Source: a virus
Strand: one strand, 5' to 3'
Virus record (IMG/VR): IMGVR_UViG_3300043399_000339
Span: 1 to 64,000 of that record
Length of the DNA stretch: 64,000 nucleotides
Shown here: positions 978 through 62,988 of the stretch, piece by piece
Layout: every line of letters begins with the position of its first letter
Position numbering within the stretch: the first letter of the stretch is position 1
Program-made: the position numbers and the translations under genes
The notes under the pieces: generated by a model
The model's database searches: none
Told to the model about the DNA's origin: nothing
The model's input: the letters and a program-made list of their open reading frames with translations, nothing else

Positions 978-1235
978 ATGAAATATATTGTCACGCTTGA
1001 CGGCCGTAAGATGATCTTTACGGATGCGCAGCTAACCACGCTTATTGATCTACTTGACGAGGTACCCATCCTCACGGAAGAATACATCGGTACAGGTAAA
1101 GGCGACGACGGAGGCGCGTACAAACTACATATCCGAAAGCTCAAAGTGGAGAGCGATCTAACTGTTAGAACTATGTCCGATAACCGATACCAAGCACTTC
1201 TTCTCAAAACCAAACTGTACGACGAATCCAAATGA
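978..1235 (+). CDS. Small hypothetical protein (85 aa)
   Basis: Starts at ATG 978 just after GAGGAG, which overlaps the previous stop (MKYIVTLDGRKMIFTD). A longer in-frame reading upstream would cover the previous gene and is rejected. Overlaps the next gene by 4 bp (ATGA), indicating translational coupling. No recognisable domain. A palindrome of the TCTAAC/GTTAGA class lies inside it at 1157-1169. Confidence 0.75.
   Translation: MKYIVTLDGRKMIFTDAQLTTLIDLLDEVPILTEEYIGTGKGDDGGAYKLHIRKLKVESDLTVRTMSDNRYQALLLKTKLYDESK
1157..1169. promoter_or_regulatory. TCTAAC-T-GTTAGA palindrome (left arm, intragenic)
   Basis: Half-sites identical to the right-arm palindromes, with a 1-nt spacer. It lies within the 978-1235 gene. 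Being isolated from the right-arm cluster, it may be chance. Confidence 0.35.
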
Positions 1236-2122
1236 ACACTGAACTCATCTCTGGCGTGGCACGCGCCGCAATGCTGGTCTCTTTCAACGTGTCCATGTAC
1301 TCCGGCCGCAAGCAGGACAAGCAAACGCAGGCCGAGGTGGTGCAGGCCAAGGGCAGTGGTTCCTCCCGAGCCGCGTCCGTCTACAAGTCGCTGTTTGCTG
1401 ATTGCGCTGAGCTGGACAACATTGTAAAGTTTCAGGCTCGGGCCCGGGCCCGGCACTATCAGCTGACGCTGCCGTGGAATGATGGCGGCGCGCGTCTCCT
1501 CCCAACTGCGGCTCTCATGGACTACAAAGCGGAAATGAACCGGTACTCGGACGAGTTTGACCTGCTGGTCAGCGCGTTCCTCGACAAGTACGACACCCTG
1601 GTCGCCGCGGCCGCGTTCAAGCTGGGCACGTTGTTCGACCGCGACGAATACCCGCTGCGCGACGAGGTGGCTCGCAAGTTCCGGTTCAATCTGGCATTCT
1701 CCCCCCTCCCTACGTCTGGCGACTTCCGCCTGGACATTGAGCACGAGGTGCAGCAGGAACTTGCCAGCCAGTACGAGAAGCGCATGCACCAGCAGCTGGC
1801 GCAGGCACAGCAGGACGCGTGGGACCGGATGCATACGGCACTCAGCCGGCTCAAGGACCGGCTCACGCTCAACGAGGACGGCACCCGCCGTACGTTCCAC
1901 GAGACCACGGTGACCAACGCGCAAGAGCTTTGCAGTGCGCTGACGTCGCTTAACGTCACCAACGACCCGCGTCTGGAGAGTGCCCGGCGCCAACTTGAGG
2001 AGGCCATGATCGGGGTCGACCCGAAGGAGCTGCGCAAAGAAGAGAGCGTGCGACTCCAGACCTTGCACAAGGTCAATTCCATCTTGGACGCATTTGATTG
2101 GGGCACTGCTGATGCAGACTGA
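1232..2122 (+). CDS. DUF3150-like phage protein
   Basis: 296 residues. The N-terminal pattern (VSFNVSMYSGRKQDKQTQAEV), the LPWNDGGARLLP segment and the F-x-F-x-x-x-x-x-P-x-P-x-x-GDFR segment near residue 160 resemble phage DUF3150 proteins. Members are often encoded near MoxR-type ATPases and VWA-like proteins, as here if the window ends join: the ATPase is at 59784 and the VWA protein at 61822. The second half is helical and charged. It probably serves as a partner of that ATPase system; the biochemical role is unknown. Coupled to its neighbours by 4-bp and 11-bp overlaps. Confidence 0.65.
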   Translation: MNTELISGVARAAMLVSFNVSMYSGRKQDKQTQAEVVQAKGSGSSRAASVYKSLFADCAELDNIVKFQARARARHYQLTLPWNDGGARLLPTAALMDYKAEMNRYSDEFDLLVSAFLDKYDTLVAAAAFKLGTLFDRDEYPLRDEVARKFRFNLAFSPLPTSGDFRLDIEHEVQQELASQYEKRMHQQLAQAQQDAWDRMHTALSRLKDRLTLNEDGTRRTFHETTVTNAQELCSALTSLNVTNDPRLESARRQLEEAMIGVDPKELRKEESVRLQTLHKVNSILDAFDWGTADAD

Positions 2123-2363
2123 AACTCCAACCACGCTGTGCCGGTATCAGTCGAACCACATCAAGTGGTACCTGAATACCTATGGCCCAGCAACCTATGT
2201 ACACACTGCTGACGGCAAGCTAGGCACAGAGCCTGATTGGCTGAAGACTGTGATGAACGTAGCCAGAGCCGGTGGCAACTTAGTGTGCATGCCTGACGGG
2301 AACACAATGCTTATGTGGTTCTACGTAGACAAAGACAAACAACTTGTGAGGTTCAAACTATGA
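2112..2363 (+). CDS. Small hypothetical protein (83 aa)
   Basis: Start at ATG 2112 (MQTETPTTLCRYQSNHIKWY), overlapping the previous gene by 11 bp. An upstream in-frame ATG at 2094 has no better ribosome site. Overlaps the next gene as ATGATGA. Soluble, mixed alpha/beta composition and no recognised domain. Confidence 0.7.
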   Translation: MQTETPTTLCRYQSNHIKWYLNTYGPATYVHTADGKLGTEPDWLKTVMNVARAGGNLVCMPDGNTMLMWFYVDKDKQLVRFKL

Positions 2364-2563
2364 TGAAAATTCTCAACCCATTCCGAAAGCCAAGCGCTGT
2401 GATGCTGGCACAGGCCGAGCTAGAAGAATCCGAGCGCCAGTTGCTCGGAGCGAAAGCCGCGCAGGAGTACGCCAAGAGCATGGCTACCTACCACGAGTCG
2501 AAGATCAAACGTCTCAAGGCATACATACGTGAGTGCCATGAGGATACCGAAGCAGCCGAATAA
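2360..2563 (+). CDS. Conserved small coiled-coil phage protein
   Basis: 67 residues from ATG 2360 (MMKILNPFRKPSAVML). The rest is a charged helix (AELEESERQLLGAKAAQEYA) with heptad character, typical of a small protein found in many phage early operons. Function unknown. ATG 2363 is an equally possible start. Confidence 0.7.
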   Translation: MMKILNPFRKPSAVMLAQAELEESERQLLGAKAAQEYAKSMATYHESKIKRLKAYIRECHEDTEAAE

Positions 2564-2581
2564 CCAACTGGAGTAATCAAC

Positions 2582-2914
2582 ATGAAACGCATCATCACCG
2601 CCATCGCCTTCGCCCTGTCCACTACGGTCACGTTCGCCGTTGAGCTTCCGTGTGAATCAATCGCAAGTACGGCCCGCACTGTCATGGACGCCCGCCAGAG
2701 CGGCGTGGCACTGAGCAAAGTGCTGGCTATCGTGGACCAGTATCCGGACACGAAGACGCTCATGCGCCAGATCGTTCTGGACGCCTACTCCAAGCCGCGC
2801 TACAGCAGCGAGGAGTTCCGCCTGCGTGAGACCGAGGAGTTCGGAAACACCTGGGAGATCGCCTGCCACAAGGCCAACAGCGCCCCGTCGAAGAAGGGAG
2901 CTAGCAATGTGTAA
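2582..2914 (+). CDS. Predicted exported protein (110 aa)
   Basis: The N-terminus is a classic signal peptide: MKR, a hydrophobic stretch (IITAIAFALSTTVTF), then a likely cleavage near A-V-E. The mature part is small and helical with two Cys (residues ~23 and ~98) that could form a disulfide in the periplasm. A GGAG about 9 bp upstream supports the start. Such small exported phage proteins can act at the envelope, for example in superinfection exclusion, but nothing here proves that. Confidence 0.75.
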   Translation: MKRIITAIAFALSTTVTFAVELPCESIASTARTVMDARQSGVALSKVLAIVDQYPDTKTLMRQIVLDAYSKPRYSSEEFRLRETEEFGNTWEIACHKANSAPSKKGASNV

Positions 2915-3041
2915 CCGAGAGTGCCGCCAAGGGCGCGACTGCCACTGTGGCCCGCAGTCCAAGATCGTGAACGGCCTAGCTGCCCTGATCTGGCTCGTGT
3001 GCTTCTTTGCTGTCGTCTCCATCCTGTGGGGGCTGTGGTGA
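2907..3041 (+). CDS. Small Cys-rich single-pass membrane protein (44 aa)
   Basis: MCNRECRQGRDCHCGP followed by a hydrophobic helix (LAALIWLVCFFAVVSILWGL) and the stop. AAGGGAG lies upstream of ATG 2907. Overlaps the preceding gene by 8 bp. Four Cys before the membrane segment could bind metal. Follows the exported protein, so the two may act together at the envelope. Confidence 0.6.
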   Translation: MCNRECRQGRDCHCGPQSKIVNGLAALIWLVCFFAVVSILWGLW

Positions 3042-3130
3042 CACTCTACGCCCACCCCGTTCCGGGGTGGCCATTCCCGCAATGGCTGCCCTACCCATAC
3101 ACAAAACCGTTAGAGGATGCACCATGGTGA
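3038..3130 (+). CDS. Possible 30-aa Pro/Trp-rich peptide (GTG start)
   Basis: The GTG at 3038 overlaps the previous stop (GTGA). The peptide is rich in Pro, Trp and Tyr (PVPGWPFPQWLPYPYTKP) and runs into the next gene's start. It fills an otherwise empty 80-bp gap between coupled genes, which is the only support. Confidence 0.35.
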   Translation: MTLYAHPVPGWPFPQWLPYPYTKPLEDAPW

Positions 3131-3705
3131 ACCCAATACTGACCGATGACGAGCTTATCGACGCAATTCGCAAAGCGGGGCTTCGAGTGATCGGACCTCA
3201 CAAAAGTCTTTCACGCGCAGTCGAAGCGGCTGTGCTGGCCAAGCTGGCGCGGCAGGCCGACCGCCAGCGAGTGCCGGCTGAGGACAGCCCCGCAGTCTGT
3301 GATGCCTACGAGCGTATCGACCGCTTCCTCAGAAACAACCTTGGGGATGAGGATTACGCCGACTACTCGCACGATCTTGACTTGCTCGTCGCCGCCCCCG
3401 AAGCGCCAGCGCAGGCCAGCGCAGTAGATGACGACTACAAGGGTTGGTACTGCGCCCACTGCCAGCGAGGTGTTGACGCACGGGAAGTCACGTACAGCGA
3501 GCAGCACGAGGCATGCGGTCGGTTCATTACGCACGACAGACCGCCAAAGGTCGAGGCCAGCGCAGTGGATGAGCGCGCAGCGTTTGCGGCGTGGGTGGCG
3601 GATTACGCGCTACGTCACGAGCCGAACTACAGCAAGGCCACGGAAGACGACTGTTGGGCCGCATGGCAAGCCCGCGCCGCGCTGGCGCAGAAGGGCGGCA
3701 AATGA
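3124..3705 (+). CDS. Hypothetical phage protein with CxxC motif (193 aa)
   Basis: Start at ATG 3124 (MVNPILTDDELIDAIRKAG), after AGAGGATG. Modular: an N-terminal helical part, a central WYCAHCQRGVD segment with a CxxC pair and a later Cys (zinc-ribbon-like, residues ~120-145), and a C-terminal WVADYALRHEPNY...CWAAWQARAA segment. The C-terminal W-x-x-W pattern is common in small early phage proteins. Linkers containing 'ASAVD' flank the middle module. Overlaps the next gene as ATGA. Confidence 0.7.
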   Translation: MVNPILTDDELIDAIRKAGLRVIGPHKSLSRAVEAAVLAKLARQADRQRVPAEDSPAVCDAYERIDRFLRNNLGDEDYADYSHDLDLLVAAPEAPAQASAVDDDYKGWYCAHCQRGVDAREVTYSEQHEACGRFITHDRPPKVEASAVDERAAFAAWVADYALRHEPNYSKATEDDCWAAWQARAALAQKGGK

Positions 3706-3950
3706 GCCGCGACGAGATCATCAATATGGCGCGGGAATCTGGCCTTGTCAGCGATTCCTACGTTTATGACAGTACAGACGAAGCTGACTGGAAAGACATT
3801 GAACGCTTCGCCGCCCTGGTGGCCGCAGCAGAGCGCGAGGCGTGCGCGCAGGTGCTTAATGAGAACGCCAAGCTGTGCGTGAGGAACAAACTGCTACGCG
3901 AAATCCTTGAGGCAAACGCCGACGCCATCCGTGCACGAGGTGCAGCATGA
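3702..3950 (+). CDS. Conserved small phage protein (82 aa)
   Basis: MSRDEIINMARESGL followed by FAALVAAAEREACAQV, the standard layout of a small helical protein frequent in Burkholderiales phages and prophages. Coupled to both neighbours by 4-bp overlaps. No enzymatic motif. Confidence 0.75.
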   Translation: MSRDEIINMARESGLVSDSYVYDSTDEADWKDIERFAALVAAAEREACAQVLNENAKLCVRNKLLREILEANADAIRARGAA

Positions 3951-4219
3951 GCAATCAACCTGAAGCCCTGCGGTGGGCTGATGTTTTGGTGCGCGATGTG
4001 GGCAACCAACTGGTCAACAGAAAGCAAGCCGCCGCCGAACTGCGCCGCCTGCACGCAGAAGTTGAGGCAAGCGACCGCAACCTGTGCGATCTGACCGACA
4101 ACCTGATCAAAGCCGTTGCATTGCTGCGGCAGGCCCATGAAGCCCTGGAAACCGACGACTGGCAGAAGAAGTTGCAGGCCAGCATTGACATCAAGAAGCA
4201 CTTGGAGAGTGGCACATGA
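3947..4219 (+). CDS. Small coiled-coil hypothetical protein (90 aa)
   Basis: Helical and charged (RKQAAAELRRLHAEVEASD). The AAELRRLHAE segment recurs in the 4329 gene, so the two may share a duplicated module. Start ATG 3947 overlaps the upstream stop. Confidence 0.7.
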   Translation: MSNQPEALRWADVLVRDVGNQLVNRKQAAAELRRLHAEVEASDRNLCDLTDNLIKAVALLRQAHEALETDDWQKKLQASIDIKKHLESGT

Positions 4220-4332
4220 CGGAGATTGAGAAAGTCTCATGCTGGTTGAGGATTTTGTTGTACTTGCTGCTCGCTGTTACGTGGTTTCACGTCGGGCTTT
4301 TTGTTTTTCTATTCGTTAAGGGGCAGATATGA
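4216..4332 (+). CDS. 38-aa membrane protein
   Basis: Short ORF linking two genes with 4-bp overlaps on both sides. MTEIEKVSCW is followed by a long hydrophobic stretch (LLYLLLAVTWFHVGLFVFLF) and KGQI. One or two membrane passes. Exact coupling on both sides argues that it is real. Confidence 0.6.
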   Translation: MTEIEKVSCWLRILLYLLLAVTWFHVGLFVFLFVKGQI

Positions 4333-4607
4333 CAAAAGACAACGAAGCCGAACTGCGCCGCCTGCACGCCGAGAATAAAGAACTGCGTGAAGCCAACGAA
4401 GCCTTCGGAAAACGCCAAGAGTGGTGGAACAGCAGGATGGCAAACATGGAAGCAGAGAACGAGGCCAAGGACGTCCTGCTGCGGCAGGCGTGGGCTGTCA
4501 TTAGGTGGCAGTGCTTCGGAGAGTGCAGAACGGATGGAGTCGAAGGGCTACCAACCCCAAGTGAAATCGACGCCGCTATTCGCCAACACCTAAAGGAAAC
4601 CAAATGA
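4329..4607 (+). CDS. Small coiled-coil hypothetical protein (92 aa)
   Basis: Starts MTKDNEAELRRLHAENKEL, a heptad-like helix over residues ~5-50, then a Cys/Trp-containing tail. Resembles the 3947 protein in its AELRRLHAE module. Probably oligomeric. Function unknown. Confidence 0.7.
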   Translation: MTKDNEAELRRLHAENKELREANEAFGKRQEWWNSRMANMEAENEAKDVLLRQAWAVIRWQCFGECRTDGVEGLPTPSEIDAAIRQHLKETK

Positions 4608-5086
4608 GAAAACGAAGCAAGTACAGACCCAAGCCTCAGTATGTCAACCCAGTGGCTGCCGTTGTCGAGAAGCTCACCCCTGTGACTGAGCACGATACGG
4701 AGTTCGCGAGTGGCGTACAGCTCAAGAACCACGCGGCCATGACTGCGCTCATTCAGGGGCATGCAACACGCAAGGACATGGACATCCTGATCGCGGTGTA
4801 CAACATCATGGAGGCGCTGCGGATCAACGAGGTGTGCGCCCCTCTGAAGGAAGAGGTCAAAGCCGCAGGCGTTGCGCTGGAGTCCCTGGCGCACCGCGCG
4901 GCCCGCACGGGGCGCTTCGTCCCTGCAGGGCCTGAGATCAAAGCCCTGAACCTGCTGCTGGAGCTGCACGACGAGATCATGCCCGGGGTCACTGTCCAGA
5001 TGCTGGACGACGCCTTGAGCACCGCGCGCCGCCTGGAGCCCACAGCACGCAGACTGCCTACATACAAACCGGAGGTGACCGCATGA
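4604..5086 (+). CDS. Conserved hypothetical protein (160 aa)
   Basis: Basic N-terminus (MRKRSKYRPKPQYVNPVA) then an all-helical body (MTALIQGHATRKDMDILIA). Similar proteins recur in Burkholderia phages and prophages, without assigned function. Overlaps both neighbours by 4 bp. Confidence 0.7.
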   Translation: MRKRSKYRPKPQYVNPVAAVVEKLTPVTEHDTEFASGVQLKNHAAMTALIQGHATRKDMDILIAVYNIMEALRINEVCAPLKEEVKAAGVALESLAHRAARTGRFVPAGPEIKALNLLLELHDEIMPGVTVQMLDDALSTARRLEPTARRLPTYKPEVTA

Positions 5087-8107: not shown

Positions 8108-8614
8108 ATGAGTGCTAAAAATACCGAAGCAACTTTTTGGGCTCGTGTCAACCGTGGCGCCCCATACGATTGCTGGGAGTGGGAAGGCGCGATAACTAGC
8201 AGCGGATATGGGAATACCTCTTGGCATGGAGCTAGGGTGCAAGCGCACCGACTAGCCTACTTTTTGGCTGTCGGGGGTATCGAGTTGAAGACTGGATTTA
8301 GGGACGCCGGGGTCGCAAAGGAGTATCAGAAATTTGTGCTGCACAGATGCGATAACCGACGGTGCTGCAATCCGGCACATTTGTTCCTCGGGTCTATGCG
8401 GGATAACCAAATAGACGCTTACTCTAAGGGTAGGAGGGAGCAGCCTAAGAGCATGCACGTAAACGCCAAAATACCAGCTGCAGAAGTGTCCCGCATTAGG
8501 AGTAGGTACAAGGAGGGCGGTATAACGCAGAAGGCGCTAGCCTCTGAATACTCAGTGTCGCAGGTATCCATCAGTTTGATACTCCGCAGAAAAACCTACA
8601 AGGACGTAGAGTAA
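8108..8614 (+). CDS. HNH homing-type endonuclease with C-terminal HTH
   Basis: 168 residues. N-terminal CWEWEGAITSSGYG and RVQAHRLAY, then LHRCDNRRCCNPAHLFLG, are the HNH_3-type nuclease motifs with zinc-binding Cys/His. The C-terminal ALASEYSVSQVSISLILRR is a helix-turn-helix for DNA recognition. Freestanding genes of this kind are usually selfish homing elements. It stops on the first base of the DNA polymerase start (TAATG), the gene that also contains an intein. Codon use is less GC-biased than in its neighbours, consistent with recent arrival. Confidence 0.85.
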   Translation: MSAKNTEATFWARVNRGAPYDCWEWEGAITSSGYGNTSWHGARVQAHRLAYFLAVGGIELKTGFRDAGVAKEYQKFVLHRCDNRRCCNPAHLFLGSMRDNQIDAYSKGRREQPKSMHVNAKIPAAEVSRIRSRYKEGGITQKALASEYSVSQVSISLILRRKTYKDVE

Positions 8615-11343
8615 TGCCAGAATTAGTTACAGTAGATGCGGAAACGTTTTACTCACGAGATTTCAGTCTAACCAAGCTGACTACCGAGGCATACGTACGC
8701 GACAGCAGGTTCGAGGTCATCGGCGTGGCTATCAAGATCGGAGATGGGCGTACTACGTGGTACCCAAAGCCAGAAGTAGCCGGAGCCATCGAGAGTATCG
8801 ACTGGTCGGACAAGCTGGTGCTGGCGCAGAACTGCGCCTTCGACGCGGCCATCCTGGCGTGGCGCTACGGCGTCAAACCGTTGGCTTGGCTGGACACGCT
8901 TGGCATGTCGCGCGCGCTGTTTCCGCACGAGAAGTCGCACAGTTTGGACGCGCAGGCCAAACGCATGGGGGTGGGTACCAAGGGCACTGAGGTGCACAAC
9001 GCGCTTGGCATGCGGTATGAGGACTTCACCCCGGCGACGCTGGCTCCGTATGGCGCCTACTGCAAGAACGACGTTGAGCTGACCTACGGCCTATTCCAGC
9101 GCTACATGGCCATGGGCTTCCCCAAGCAGGAGCTCAAACTGATCGACATGACGTTGCGCATGTTCGTGGAGCCCGTGCTGAAGCTAGACGCAGACCTGCT
9201 GACCAAGCATTTGGTGGAGGTACGGTCACGCAAGCGAGAACTGCTGGAGCGGGTGCGCGACAACATGCTGGCCAACGCCGACCCGGACTACATAGCCACG
9301 GTGTTCTCCGAAGGCACGGAGGGTATCAAGAAGCTGCTGATGAGCAACGAGAAGTTTGCCGCTGCCCTGCAGTCCCTCGGCGTCGACCCACCGCGCAAAG
9401 TAAGCGCCACCACGGGCAAGGAGACCTGGGCGTTTGCCAAGACCGACGAGGCATTCAAAGCTCTGGAGGAGCACCCGAGCGAGGAGGTGCAAGCACTGGT
9501 GGCTGCGCGGTTGGGCAACAAGACGACGCTAGAGGAGACCCGCACGGAGCGGTTCATTGATATGGCGCGCCGCGGCGCGTTCCCGGTGCCCCTGCGGTAC
9601 TACGGAGCACACTCCGGTCGTTGGTCTGGCCAGGACGCCGTGAACATGCAGAACCTTCCCTCCCGCGGTCCCAACGCCGGCGCCATCAAGAAAGCCATAT
9701 TGCCCCCGGATGGGCACGTGATGATCGACTGCGACTCCGCGCAGATCGAAGCGCGAACCCTGGCGTGGCTGGCTGGGCAGGACGATCTGGTGCAAGCGTT
9801 CCGCGACAAGCAGGACGTTTACAAACTCATGGCGTCGAAGATTTACGGCGTGCCAGTGGAGGAAGTCACCCCATTGCAGCGGCAAGTCGGAAAGACCGTG
9901 GTGCTTGGGGCCGGCTACGGCGTCGGGCACGTAAAACTACAAGGGTTCCTGAAGGTTCAGGCCAAGGTCGAAGTTAGTCTGTCGGAGGCCAAGCGCATCA
10001 TTGACACATACCGCGCGGCGGCCCCAAGGATCACGGAACTGTGGGCGCGCTCCGGCGACGCGCTGCGCGCGCTGATGATGGGTCAGGAGATGCCGATTGA
10101 TGTACCCGGGCTGGTTCGTGTTGTACCCGGGCAGGGCCTGACGCTGCCAAGCGGGCTGTGCATTCAGTACCCAGAGCTGCGCGCGGTGACCGGCAAGGAT
10201 GGCAAACGCGAGCTGGTGTACACGTCGAAGGGGCTGCCCGTCCGGATCTACGGCGGGAAGTGCTTAGGGGCAGACACAGAAGTTCTGACTCCTAGGGGCT
10301 GGGTGCCGATCGTATCCGTAGCAACCGACGACAAAGTCTGGGACGGTGTGGAATGGGTAAATCATTCCGGGTTGACGTTCCAAGGTTATAAGCCTACCAT
10401 CGTACTGAACGGGGTCCGTATGACCGAGGACCACGAAGTTCTTACTAACTACGGGTGGCGAGATGCATCATCGTGCGAAGGACTATACGGGGCAGACTTT
10501 TGGATGCCTGACGGCAGTGAGGTACGCGGGGGCCGAACGGCGTTCCATCTGGGAGTTCCAGTGCCGATGCGGGGCGCGCGTAACCCGGACGGCGATAGAC
10601 GTGGAGAAATATGCGAAGCGTGGTGGAAATTCGTCTTGCGGCTGCGCAGTCGGGGAAAAAAGTGCTACGCACGCGATGTCGAACCACCCAGCGTATTGGG
10701 TTTGGAGGTCAATGCGAGACCGCTGCAAGCTACCTTCGCATCAGGCGTGGCACAACTATGGAGCGCGTGGGATAACGGTATGCGCAGAGTGGGAGAAGTC
10801 GTTCGAGCGGTTTTGGCAGGACATGGGCTCTACATATCAGCCTGGGCTCACGCTGGATCGGAAAGACAACAACCTGGGATACAGCCCAGAAAACTGCCGC
10901 TGGGTGTCTATGGCCGTGCAAGCCGGGAACCGAAGGAACTCGCTCCCAGTGGACATCCGCAAGGCGCACGAGTTGACGGGGGTGCCGAGGTCTACACTGG
11001 AATTCCGATGGAAACGCGGCCTGTCTATGACCTCCTCAACGCCGGACCCAGATCGCGGTTCGTGGTCCGAGGTTCTTCGGGCCCGTTCGTAGTCCACAAC
11101 TGCGTCGAGAACTTCACGCAGGCCATCGCGCGGTGCATCGTGGCTGAGCAGATGCTGCGCATATCCAAGCGGTACCCAGTGGTGCTGACGGTGCACGACG
11201 CTGCAGCAATCGTGGCGCCGGAGGCAAAGGCCGACGAGGCACGGGCCTACGTGGAGGAGTGCATGAGCTGGAACCCTGCCTGGGCGCAAGGGCTGCCACT
11301 GGCCTGCGAGTCTGGGGTTGGAGCGAGCTACGGCGACTGCTAA
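8614..11343 (+). CDS. Family A DNA polymerase with in-frame intein
   Basis: 909-residue precursor. The N-terminal 3'-5' exonuclease shows DAETF (ExoI, residue ~6), NCAFDAA (ExoII) and YCKNDVEL (ExoIII). The polymerase domain shows motif A DCDSAQIEAR (~residue 372), motif B RQVGKTVVLGAGYG (~425) and motif C TVHDA (~859-863). In motif C the usual Glu of HDE is Ala; the catalytic Asp is kept. The 280-residue intein (residues 550-829) interrupts the conserved ...YGGK/CVENFTQAIAR segment between motifs B and C. Mature polymerase would be ~629 residues, a normal size for phage enzymes of this class. Main replicative polymerase of the phage. Start ATG overlaps the HNH stop. Confidence 0.95.
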   Translation: MPELVTVDAETFYSRDFSLTKLTTEAYVRDSRFEVIGVAIKIGDGRTTWYPKPEVAGAIESIDWSDKLVLAQNCAFDAAILAWRYGVKPLAWLDTLGMSRALFPHEKSHSLDAQAKRMGVGTKGTEVHNALGMRYEDFTPATLAPYGAYCKNDVELTYGLFQRYMAMGFPKQELKLIDMTLRMFVEPVLKLDADLLTKHLVEVRSRKRELLERVRDNMLANADPDYIATVFSEGTEGIKKLLMSNEKFAAALQSLGVDPPRKVSATTGKETWAFAKTDEAFKALEEHPSEEVQALVAARLGNKTTLEETRTERFIDMARRGAFPVPLRYYGAHSGRWSGQDAVNMQNLPSRGPNAGAIKKAILPPDGHVMIDCDSAQIEARTLAWLAGQDDLVQAFRDKQDVYKLMASKIYGVPVEEVTPLQRQVGKTVVLGAGYGVGHVKLQGFLKVQAKVEVSLSEAKRIIDTYRAAAPRITELWARSGDALRALMMGQEMPIDVPGLVRVVPGQGLTLPSGLCIQYPELRAVTGKDGKRELVYTSKGLPVRIYGGKCLGADTEVLTPRGWVPIVSVATDDKVWDGVEWVNHSGLTFQGYKPTIVLNGVRMTEDHEVLTNYGWRDASSCEGLYGADFWMPDGSEVRGGRTAFHLGVPVPMRGARNPDGDRRGEICEAWWKFVLRLRSRGKKCYARDVEPPSVLGLEVNARPLQATFASGVAQLWSAWDNGMRRVGEVVRAVLAGHGLYISAWAHAGSERQQPGIQPRKLPLGVYGRASREPKELAPSGHPQGARVDGGAEVYTGIPMETRPVYDLLNAGPRSRFVVRGSSGPFVVHNCVENFTQAIARCIVAEQMLRISKRYPVVLTVHDAAAIVAPEAKADEARAYVEECMSWNPAWAQGLPLACESGVGASYGDC
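10261..11100 (+). mobile_element. Intein in DNA polymerase
   Basis: Begins at Cys 550 of the precursor with block A (CLGADTEVLTPRGWVPI). Block B is MTEDHEVLT, with the TxxH histidine at residue ~607. Block F is RPVYDLLNAGPRSRFVV and block G is GPFVVHN followed by Cys, the +1 extein residue. All residues needed for Cys1-type protein splicing are visible. No LAGLIDADG motif occurs in frame; roughly 180 residues between B and F have no recognisable domain because that DNA encodes an HNH endonuclease in another frame (10463-11092). Confidence 0.93.
10463..11092 (+). CDS. HNH/AP2-type homing endonuclease nested out of frame in the intein
   Basis: 209 residues, read in the +1 frame relative to the polymerase and lying entirely inside the intein. 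Full-length layout for this family: N-terminal DYTGQTFGCLTAVRYAG; zinc-type CRCG and SCGC pairs (residues ~35-62); HPAYWVWRSMRDRC; NYGARGITVCAEW; LTLDRKDNNLGYSPENCRW (the HNH core); and a C-terminal HTH-like LTGVPRSTLEFRWKRGLS. Start ATG 10463 has only a weak GGTGGCG upstream. Its C-terminal codons overlap intein block F in the other frame, so both frames are constrained there. The likely role is homing of the intein. Confidence 0.88.
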   Translation: MHHRAKDYTGQTFGCLTAVRYAGAERRSIWEFQCRCGARVTRTAIDVEKYAKRGGNSSCGCAVGEKSATHAMSNHPAYWVWRSMRDRCKLPSHQAWHNYGARGITVCAEWEKSFERFWQDMGSTYQPGLTLDRKDNNLGYSPENCRWVSMAVQAGNRRNSLPVDIRKAHELTGVPRSTLEFRWKRGLSMTSSTPDPDRGSWSEVLRARS

Positions 11344-12050: not shown

Positions 12051-12305
12051 ATGCCTAGGAACCCCCGCGACTACCAGAAGGAGCGGGCCTACGACGGCAA
12101 GCCCGAAGTCAAAGCCAAGCGCGCGGAGCGCAACCGCGCCCGCCGAATGTACGAGAAAGAGCACGGCGACCTGCCGAGCTCCGTAGACGTAGACCACAAA
12201 AAGCCTTTGGCCAAGGGTGGCACGACCAAACTCGGCAACCTACGTGCTGTGCCGGCGGCCAAAAACCGCTCGTTTGCTCGCACCAAAACCGCTCGGATGA
12301 AGTAA
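12051..12305 (+). CDS. Small HNH endonuclease (84 aa)
   Basis: Start ATG 12051 (MPRNPRDYQKERAYDG), with AAGGAAG upstream. The core is VDVDHKKPLAKGGTTKLGNL then AVPAAKNRS, the HNH fold of a widespread small phage protein. The N-terminal half is very basic. Such proteins sit in replication modules and may nick DNA for recombination or packaging rather than homing. Followed by a terminator. Confidence 0.8.
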   Translation: MPRNPRDYQKERAYDGKPEVKAKRAERNRARRMYEKEHGDLPSSVDVDHKKPLAKGGTTKLGNLRAVPAAKNRSFARTKTARMK

Positions 12306-61821: not shown

Positions 61822-62988
61822 ATGACTCCACTCGATAGAATCAAGAAGGCCAAGGTCAGCATCATGCGCCACCCGCGCTTCTGCGCCTTCTCCGGCGTTA
61901 TGTCGTGCGGCACCACCACGGTGGACGCCAGCATCAACCCGCCCACTGCCCGCACCAACGGCCTGGACTACGTCTACCACCCAGACTTCGTTGCCTCACT
62001 GTCCGACCAGCAGCTGCGGCTGCTTATCCTGCACGAAACTCTGCATGTGGCTGGCAAGCACCTGCACATGTGGAAGGGACTGTGGAAACGCAACCCTAAA
62101 CTCGCCAACATCGCGGCTGACTATTTTGTCAACCTCGCACTCATGGACATGGACAAGGGCGAGAACTTCCTGGCCATGCCGGAGATCGGTATCCAACCGG
62201 AGCCTAAGTACCGAGGCTGGAACATCGAGCAAATCTTCAACGACTTGCTGCAGAACCCTCCTCCCAAGCGCGGCAAGGGTGGCGGAGATGATGACGGGGA
62301 GGGCGACGCTGGTCTGGACGGCCACGACTGGGAGAACTCCGAGGTCACCGAGGAGCAAGCCCGTGAGATCGACCGTGCACTGCGGCAAGGCGAGATGCTG
62401 GCGCGCAAGCGCGGCAACGGTGCGGGTAACTCTGACGGCGTGATCGGCGATCTGCTGGCTCCCAAGGTTGACTGGCGCGATCAGCTGCGTGAGTTCGTGC
62501 AGGAGCAGTGCCAGGGTCGTGATGAGTCCACGTGGCGCAAGCCCAACCGACGCTACCTCAGCAGCGACGTCTACATGCCGTCATCCATCAGCGAAACAAT
62601 GGGCCCGCTGGTCATCGGCCTGGACACATCCGGCTCGTGCTTCTCGGGAGATACGGTCACGCGGTTCGTGAGCGAGCTCAAGGCCGTCGTCGACTCGGTT
62701 CAGCCTGAGAGCGTTCGCGTGATCTGCTGGGATTGGGAAGTACGCACCGACCAGTCTTTCGACAGCGGCGCATTCGACGTGCCGTCGCTCAAGATTCGCG
62801 GCGGTGGCGGCACCCGCGGTGGCGTGCTGTTCGACCACATCGCCAAGACCCCGGGCACCAAGCCCAGCGCGATCATCCAGTTCACCGACGGAGAATTTTC
62901 TTGGCCGCAAGACTGCGGCATCCCGACCCTCTGGGTCCTCACCGAAAAACGCAACAAGGCCCCGTGGGGCAGGAGTATCTACCTGTGA
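61822..62988 (+). CDS. VWA-like metallopeptidase-domain protein (DUF2201 type)
   Basis: 388 residues. The N-terminal domain has HETLHVAGKH (~73-82), a zincin H-E-x-x-H, in the DUF2201 'putative metallopeptidase' setting (LRLLILHETLHVAG; NIAADYFVNLAL). An acidic linker (~150-185) follows. The C-terminal VWA-like domain has the MIDAS motif GLDTSGS (~270) and IQFTDGE (~353). Expected to bind a divalent metal and be remodelled by the MoxR ATPase at 59784. Target unknown. Its TGA overlaps the GTG of the next gene. Confidence 0.88.
   Translation: MTPLDRIKKAKVSIMRHPRFCAFSGVMSCGTTTVDASINPPTARTNGLDYVYHPDFVASLSDQQLRLLILHETLHVAGKHLHMWKGLWKRNPKLANIAADYFVNLALMDMDKGENFLAMPEIGIQPEPKYRGWNIEQIFNDLLQNPPPKRGKGGGDDDGEGDAGLDGHDWENSEVTEEQAREIDRALRQGEMLARKRGNGAGNSDGVIGDLLAPKVDWRDQLREFVQEQCQGRDESTWRKPNRRYLSSDVYMPSSISETMGPLVIGLDTSGSCFSGDTVTRFVSELKAVVDSVQPESVRVICWDWEVRTDQSFDSGAFDVPSLKIRGGGGTRGGVLFDHIAKTPGTKPSAIIQFTDGEFSWPQDCGIPTLWVLTEKRNKAPWGRSIYL

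What the first reader, a model, noticed from the sequence alone, without database searches (positions are those of the whole stretch)
10261..11100. Complete HNH homing endonuclease encoded out of frame inside the DNA polymerase intein
Seen: the polymerase frame has intein blocks A, B, F and G with all splicing residues, but no endonuclease motif. The +1 frame inside the same 840 bp encodes a full-length 209-residue HNH/AP2-type protein with zinc pairs, HNH core and C-terminal HTH. Both frames stay open for 630 bp. The endonuclease's C-terminal codons overlap the codons of intein block F, so one stretch of DNA carries two constrained proteins. Known: inteins normally carry their nuclease as an in-frame domain. 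Inferred: a freestanding gene invaded a mini-intein and is kept in an alternative frame compatible with splicing.
Basis: partly seen in the sequence, partly recalled or inferred. Interest (0 to 1): 0.92.

Follow-up and report, generated by a model that had tools for sequence, protein, structure and literature searches.

The report
Intein hiding an out-of-frame endonuclease gene
A self-splicing insert in this phage's DNA polymerase gene carries a separate DNA-cutting enzyme written in a different reading frame of the same DNA, and the same double arrangement is kept in well over a hundred related phage and prophage genes, so it looks like a real and previously overlooked design of a mobile genetic element.

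Summary
The polymerase ORF (8614-11343) carries an 840-bp intein (10261-11100), and a complete 209-residue HNH endonuclease ORF (10463-11092) lies inside it in the +1 frame. It is not chance and not unique. 128 distinct inteins of this family have an HNH ORF in the +1 frame and 12 in the +2 frame, including APSE-1, Caulobacter phage RW, Streptococcus prophages and Salmonella Jerseyvirus. None has the HNH in frame. The polymerase frame has 0 stops across the HNH genes, where shuffling synonymous HNH codons predicts 754 (+1) and 39 (+2). All 23 non-intein relatives of the nuclease have stops in the matching frame. Constraint is divided: the HNH body is selected only in its own frame (omega 0.16; polymerase frame about 1.1, but stop-free), the end is constrained in both. 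AlphaFold gives a confident splicing fold interrupted by a disordered read-through. Alleles with and without the intein occur side by side. Best reading: HNH homing genes were captured by small inteins, probably more than once, and are translated from their own start codons. Single cases have been annotated before, and out-of-frame HNH insertions without an intein were published in 2025. I found no description of the conserved intein class. Translation, splicing and cleavage are untested.

The parts
8614..10260 (+). N-extein of family A DNA polymerase
   Evidence: Pfam DNA_pol_A E=1.5e-35; phrog_17
10261..10536 (+). Intein N-terminal splicing part (Cys1, blocks A and B), residues 1-92
   Evidence: AlphaFold pLDDT 79-96, intein fold; similar to Mtu RecA intein block B
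10463..10465 (+). ATG start codon of the nested HNH ORF, at the end of block B
   Evidence: NTG kept at this place in 72 of 97 loci against 22 expected from synonymous resampling of the intein frame
10463..11092 (+). Out-of-frame (+1) HNH homing endonuclease ORF, 209 aa, including stop TAG 11090-11092
   Evidence: phrog_374 E=1.6e-59; I-HmuI profile match E=1.2e-4; pLDDT 87.5; purifying selection
10537..10998 (+). Read-through segment of the intein (residues 93-246): polymerase-frame translation of the HNH gene, predicted disordered, near-neutral but free of stops
10999..11100 (+). Intein C-terminal splicing part (blocks F and G, ending His-Asn), overlapping the HNH C terminus
   Evidence: constraint in both frames in the overlap
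11101..11343 (+). C-extein of DNA polymerase (starts Cys+1, CVENFTQA motif)
   Evidence: 76 intein-less homologues are continuous across this point

Best explanation
This is a mobile intein in a phage family A DNA polymerase whose homing endonuclease is encoded in the +1 frame rather than as an in-frame domain. The polymerase frame is translated through the whole element. The splicing domain (residues about 1-92 and 247-280) folds around a disordered loop, which is the HNH gene read in the wrong frame, and excises itself. The HNH protein is made by separate internal initiation at the NTG codon at the end of block B. It cuts intein-less polymerase alleles at the conserved GGK/VENxxQA site, and repair copies in the whole element, so intein and nuclease gene travel together. 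Selection keeps the HNH residues, keeps the splicing residues, and removes stop codons from the intein frame. The arrangement arose when free-standing HNH homing genes landed in mini-inteins, probably more than once and in two frames. Shown here: anatomy, conservation, divided selection, stop avoidance, alleles with and without the element. Inferred: HNH translation, splicing, cleavage of the empty site, direction of the invasion.
For: Of 161 distinct inteins fetched, 133 have an HNH ORF in +1 and 13 in +2, and none has it in frame; 128 and 12 pass the stricter filter. No polymerase-frame stops against 754 (+1) and 39 (+2) expected, and 445.9 expected for 82 lineage representatives. All 23 non-intein HNH relatives have 3-39 stops in the matching frame. 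HNH body: HNH-frame omega 0.16 (0.04-0.26), polymerase-frame omega about 1.1 with stop-making changes depressed. NTG at the conserved start in 72 of 97 loci against 22 expected. 76 intein-less alleles at the window's site. Jerseyvirus polymerases 95% identical in DNA with and without the +2-type intein, exact empty site. HNH 81% identical against extein 68% between Jerseyvirus Ent1 and Sodalis phage SO-1. Folds. HNH tree with free-standing relatives between the nested groups.
Against: There is no expression, splicing or cleavage evidence. No ribosome-binding site could be shown: SD-like motifs occur in 66 of 97 loci against 63.8 expected, and the window has no clear one. The usual catalytic histidine of HNH is an invariant Arg here, so catalysis would need another general base, as tyrosine does in PacI (PMC4081073). 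The HNH has no significant Foldseek match in the PDB. The count of independent captures rests on a quick tree.
Confidence: 0.85

Rival explanations
1. The HNH part is reached by programmed ribosomal frameshifting from the polymerase frame, giving an extein-intein-HNH fusion, rather than by separate initiation.
For: The HNH frame always has the same offset within each clade, and no Shine-Dalgarno enrichment was found.
Against: In most of 66 loci a stop lies 0-24 nt upstream of the conserved start in the HNH frame (two of them directly before it), while the residues right after the start (HHRAKD) are conserved, so a shift would have to fall in a very short stretch. NTG is kept beyond expectation. 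Two different offsets exist.
Confidence: 0.07
2. The HNH ORF is a recent or decaying insertion and the polymerase-frame openness is luck from high GC content.
For: The window is 59% GC, and its own P(0 stops) is only 0.004.
Against: The same layout holds in AT-richer genomes (42-48% GC; 7-15 stops expected and none found) and in distant phages at 43-46% HNH identity; the HNH frame is under purifying selection.
Confidence: 0.02
3. The element no longer homes: the HNH protein is kept for another role (regulation, exclusion of competing phages), and the intein is inherited mostly vertically.
For: The canonical catalytic His is missing, and the element is old in several clades.
Against: Presence/absence polymorphism among 95% identical Jerseyvirus alleles; HNH more similar than exteins in 300 of 312 pairs, although those pairs were chosen for high HNH identity.
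Confidence: 0.1
4. The insert is an RNA intron with an ORF, not an intein.
For: Sodalis phage SO-1 annotators labelled its homologue a type I self-splicing intron.
Against: No Rfam intron hit anywhere in the window; the polymerase frame is open; Cys1, blocks A/B/F/G and His-Asn-Cys are conserved and fold as an intein.
Confidence: 0.01

Closest known systems
Canonical large (mobile) inteins with an in-frame homing endonuclease domain
   Same: Splicing domain at a conserved polymerase site, nuclease placed between blocks B and F, empty alleles exist
   Different: Here the nuclease is in another reading frame with its own start, and the intein frame across it is unconstrained filler
[quoted passage not shown]
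   Same: An HNH endonuclease hidden out of frame inside a stop-free insertion in a phage gene; disjunct distribution
   Different: The authors found no intein or intron features; here a complete intein surrounds the HNH gene
[quoted passage not shown]
   Same: Same idea stated for one phage group
   Different: Different host gene; intein features not shown in the text read, and the record was not in the collection, so it was not compared
APSE-1 P45/P46 and Sodalis SO-1 gp38/gp39 (GenBank annotations)
   Same: Homologues of this element with the nested ORF annotated
   Different: Annotated as separate or overlapping genes or as an intron; Salmonella phage Ent1 annotates the intein but misses the nested HNH ORF
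Fractured genes with split inteins and an intervening homing endonuclease (Dassa et al. 2009, recalled, not read)
   Same: Nuclease ORF between intein halves
   Different: There the host gene is broken into two ORFs; here it stays continuous. A split form does occur at another site in L011, L166, L168 and L300

Membership tests
Intein | Splicing residues and blocks A, B, F, G, and HINT fold | tested here: met
   Alignment; AlphaFold and Foldseek to gp41-1, DnaX and RecA inteins
Intein | Inserted precisely at a conserved host-protein site; empty alleles exist | tested here: met
   76 empty alleles continuous at the window's site; exact empty site in Jerseyvirus S101 for the +2 relative
Intein | Protein splicing activity | not testable with these tools
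   needs a splicing assay
Canonical mobile intein | Homing endonuclease as an in-frame domain | tested here: not met
   HNH is in +1 or +2 in every nested member
HNH homing endonuclease (phrog_374 type) | Sequence family membership | tested here: met
   phrog_374 E=1.6e-59; I-HmuI profile match E=1.2e-4
HNH homing endonuclease (phrog_374 type) | Canonical catalytic His of the HNH motif | tested here: not met
   Invariant Arg133 at that place in 43 of 43
HNH homing endonuclease (phrog_374 type) | DNA cleavage at the empty site | not testable with these tools
   needs a cleavage assay
ShiLan-type out-of-frame HNH insertion | Out-of-frame HNH in a stop-free insert | tested here: met
ShiLan-type out-of-frame HNH insertion | No intein splicing motifs in the host frame | tested here: not met
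   Intein blocks are present
Group I/II intron with ORF | Intron RNA structure | tested here: not met
   No Rfam hit at gathering threshold in the window
Split-intein fractured gene | Host gene broken into two ORFs | tested here: not met
   The window's polymerase ORF is continuous; met at another site in L011, L166, L168, L300

The most novel reading that the evidence does not exclude
A distinct architecture of mobile intein: splicing element and homing endonuclease share the same DNA in different frames. It arose repeatedly by capture of free-standing HNH genes into mini-inteins (two frames, several polymerase sites and at least one helicase), is maintained by stop avoidance in the intein frame, and may be the stage from which split inteins with intervening nuclease genes arise when the host frame finally breaks.
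Probability: 0.55. Interest if true: 0.88.

Novelty: new variant of a known kind. Interest (0 to 1): 0.8.

Why it matters
Inteins are taught as in-frame protein introns whose nuclease, when present, is a domain of the same polypeptide. Here a whole intein family instead encodes its nuclease as a separate, overlapping gene. This separates splicing from homing, suggests a simple route from free-standing homing gene to mobile intein, points to a possible origin of split inteins, and explains 'mini-inteins with a long linker' in common phages (145 Salmonella phage records match the family's N-terminal part). Standard annotation misses the nuclease because it calls one frame. It also gives a clean natural case of overlapping genes with divided selection.

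Tried and rejected
Intron reading: no Rfam hit. Chance opening of the polymerase frame: rejected by codon shuffles and by free-standing relatives. Constraint of both frames throughout: rejected for the HNH body, kept for the 3' overlap. A Shine-Dalgarno site as proof of expression: not supported beyond what the intein codons give anyway. AP2 domain: no support. Foldseek of the HNH model against PDB: no significant match, PacI second at E=1.1. The intein tree is too short to resolve. Brucellaphage records were not in the collection, and the actinobacteriophage intein preprint cited by PMC11855218 is not held, so prior description there cannot be excluded.

Full report
1. Observation. The polymerase ORF 8614-11343 and the 209-aa ORF 10463-11092 are exactly as described. 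The intein runs from Cys1 (10261) to His-Asn (11098-11100 is the Asn codon), followed by Cys+1. The nested ORF is in +1, starts at the end of block B and stops inside block G. The window is a 64.5-kb IMG/VR virus record.

2. Anatomy. Read in the polymerase frame, AlphaFold gives two confident pieces, residues 1-92 and 247-281, with 93-246 at pLDDT about 30. Foldseek matches are inteins (gp41-1, DnaX, DnaB, Mtu RecA), and the profile matches the Mtu RecA intein. Read in +1, the product belongs to HNH family phrog_374 (E=1.6e-59), matches I-HmuI by profile (E=1.2e-4) and folds with mean pLDDT 87.5. Cys34, Cys36, Cys59, Cys61 and the core N144 are invariant in 43 of 43, but the position of the I-HmuI general-base histidine is an invariant Arg133. 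PacI, an HNH enzyme, uses tyrosine as general base (PMC4081073), and Tyr140 and Tyr99 are invariant here, so activity is not excluded.

3. It is a family. Searches of phages, IMG/VR and GTDB genomes gave 161 distinct inteins. 133 have an HNH ORF in +1, 13 in +2 with a second HNH type, and a handful lack HNH (372-534-nt mini-inteins in Succinimonas, Ruminococcus and Acidithiobacillus loci and others). None has HNH in frame. A stricter filter keeps 128 and 12. Named +1 carriers: APSE-1 and APSE-2, Shewanella SFCi1, Caulobacter RW, Streptococcus Javan255, and loci in Alicyclobacillus, Paenibacillus and Gardnerella genomes. Named +2 carriers: Salmonella Ent1 (Jerseyvirus), Kagunavirus fEg-Eco19, Dhillonvirus SO-1 and EP23, Pseudomonas MR14, Vibrio 97.13. 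Sites include GGK^VENxxQA, GGKxxEN^xQA, GKx^ELxxGYxG and KxxELA^GYGG. In L185 and L186 one polymerase gene carries two inteins, one with HNH in +2 and one in +1. The virus behind L186 has a third, in a helicase gene, again +1.

4. Selection. (a) Permuting synonymous codons inside each HNH gene, which keeps its protein and codon usage, gives 754 expected polymerase-frame stops over 128 +1 genes and 39 over 12 +2 genes; 0 are observed, while the third frame has 1340 and 145. For 82 lineage representatives 446 are expected. Having N and C parts in one ORF was part of the definition, but inteins with the parts in different ORFs were only five and belong to a separate split type. (b) The 23 non-intein relatives of the same HNH family all have stops in the matching frame (3-39). 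(c) Classifying substitutions in independent pairs by their effect in both frames: in the HNH body, HNH omega is 0.16 (0.04-0.26) and polymerase-frame omega 1.16 (0.49-4.22) for close pairs, 0.31 and 1.07 for wider pairs, with stop-making changes reduced. In the 3' overlap, both frames are constrained (HNH 0.52, intein 0.33-0.44); in the 5' overlap, HNH 0.34 and intein 0.27-0.63. (d) The NTG start is kept in 72 of 97 loci against 22 expected from the intein codons. An SD motif is not enriched (66 against 63.8).

5. Mobility. 76 intein-less polymerases at 61-71% identity to the window are continuous at its site. Salmonella Jerseyvirus polymerases with and without the intein are 95% identical in DNA (104 differences in 2202), with an exact empty site. 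Between Ent1 and Sodalis SO-1 the HNH is 81% and the extein 68% identical. The HNH tree separates three nested groups (main +1, Firmicutes-type +1, +2), with free-standing relatives between the main +1 group and the other two. This is a quick tree, so I claim at least two captures as likely, not proven.

6. A related state. At the site TGRWxG^SDxxNLQ in L011, L166, L168 and L300, intein N and C halves lie in different ORFs with an HNH ORF between them. This suggests that when the host frame breaks across the nested gene, a split intein with an intervening nuclease can result. L231 is also split at that site, but a nuclease between the halves was not shown.

7. Prior knowledge. Out-of-frame HNH insertions without intein features were published in 2025 (PMC11855218). 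One brucellaphage paper speaks of an intein-encoded HNH gene out of frame in terminase (PMC4422536). APSE-1 P46 and SO-1 gp39 are annotated nested ORFs, and Ent1 has the intein annotated but not the HNH. Ten literature searches in open PMC found no description of this conserved intein class. A preprint on actinobacteriophage inteins with 'non-canonical architecture' could not be read.

8. Verdict. Translation of HNH, splicing and cleavage remain inferred.

Noticed in passing
L011:1287-2272, L166:1823-2820, L168:136-1142, L300:16-950; also L231:4001-4604: Second, upstream polymerase intein whose N and C halves are in separate ORFs; an HNH ORF lies between them in the first four loci, resembling split-intein fractured genes. 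L231 is also split but the HNH there was not shown.
   Followed up: partly
L185, L186 (polymerase ORFs 1066-4815 and 1132-4818): One polymerase gene with two inteins carrying HNH genes in different frames (+2 and +1).
   Followed up: yes
L312 reverse strand 543-2837: Intein of the same family in a helicase gene, with an HNH ORF in +1 (1852-2508), in the same virus as L186.
   Followed up: partly
window 8108-8614: Another HNH (Pfam HNH_3) ORF ending at the polymerase start codon.
   Followed up: no
window 12051-12305: Small ORF (phrog_4590) with an HNH-like DVDHKKPLAKGG...NL motif, just downstream of the exonuclease gene.
   Followed up: no
window 61822-62988: ORF matching HNH endonuclease family phrog_1314 (E=1.1e-77).
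   Followed up: no
NC_019539.1 (L115) intein 3001-3897: Annotated only as an intein with splicing domains; contains an unannotated HNH ORF in +2. 145 Salmonella phage records match the N-terminal part of this intein family.
   Followed up: partly
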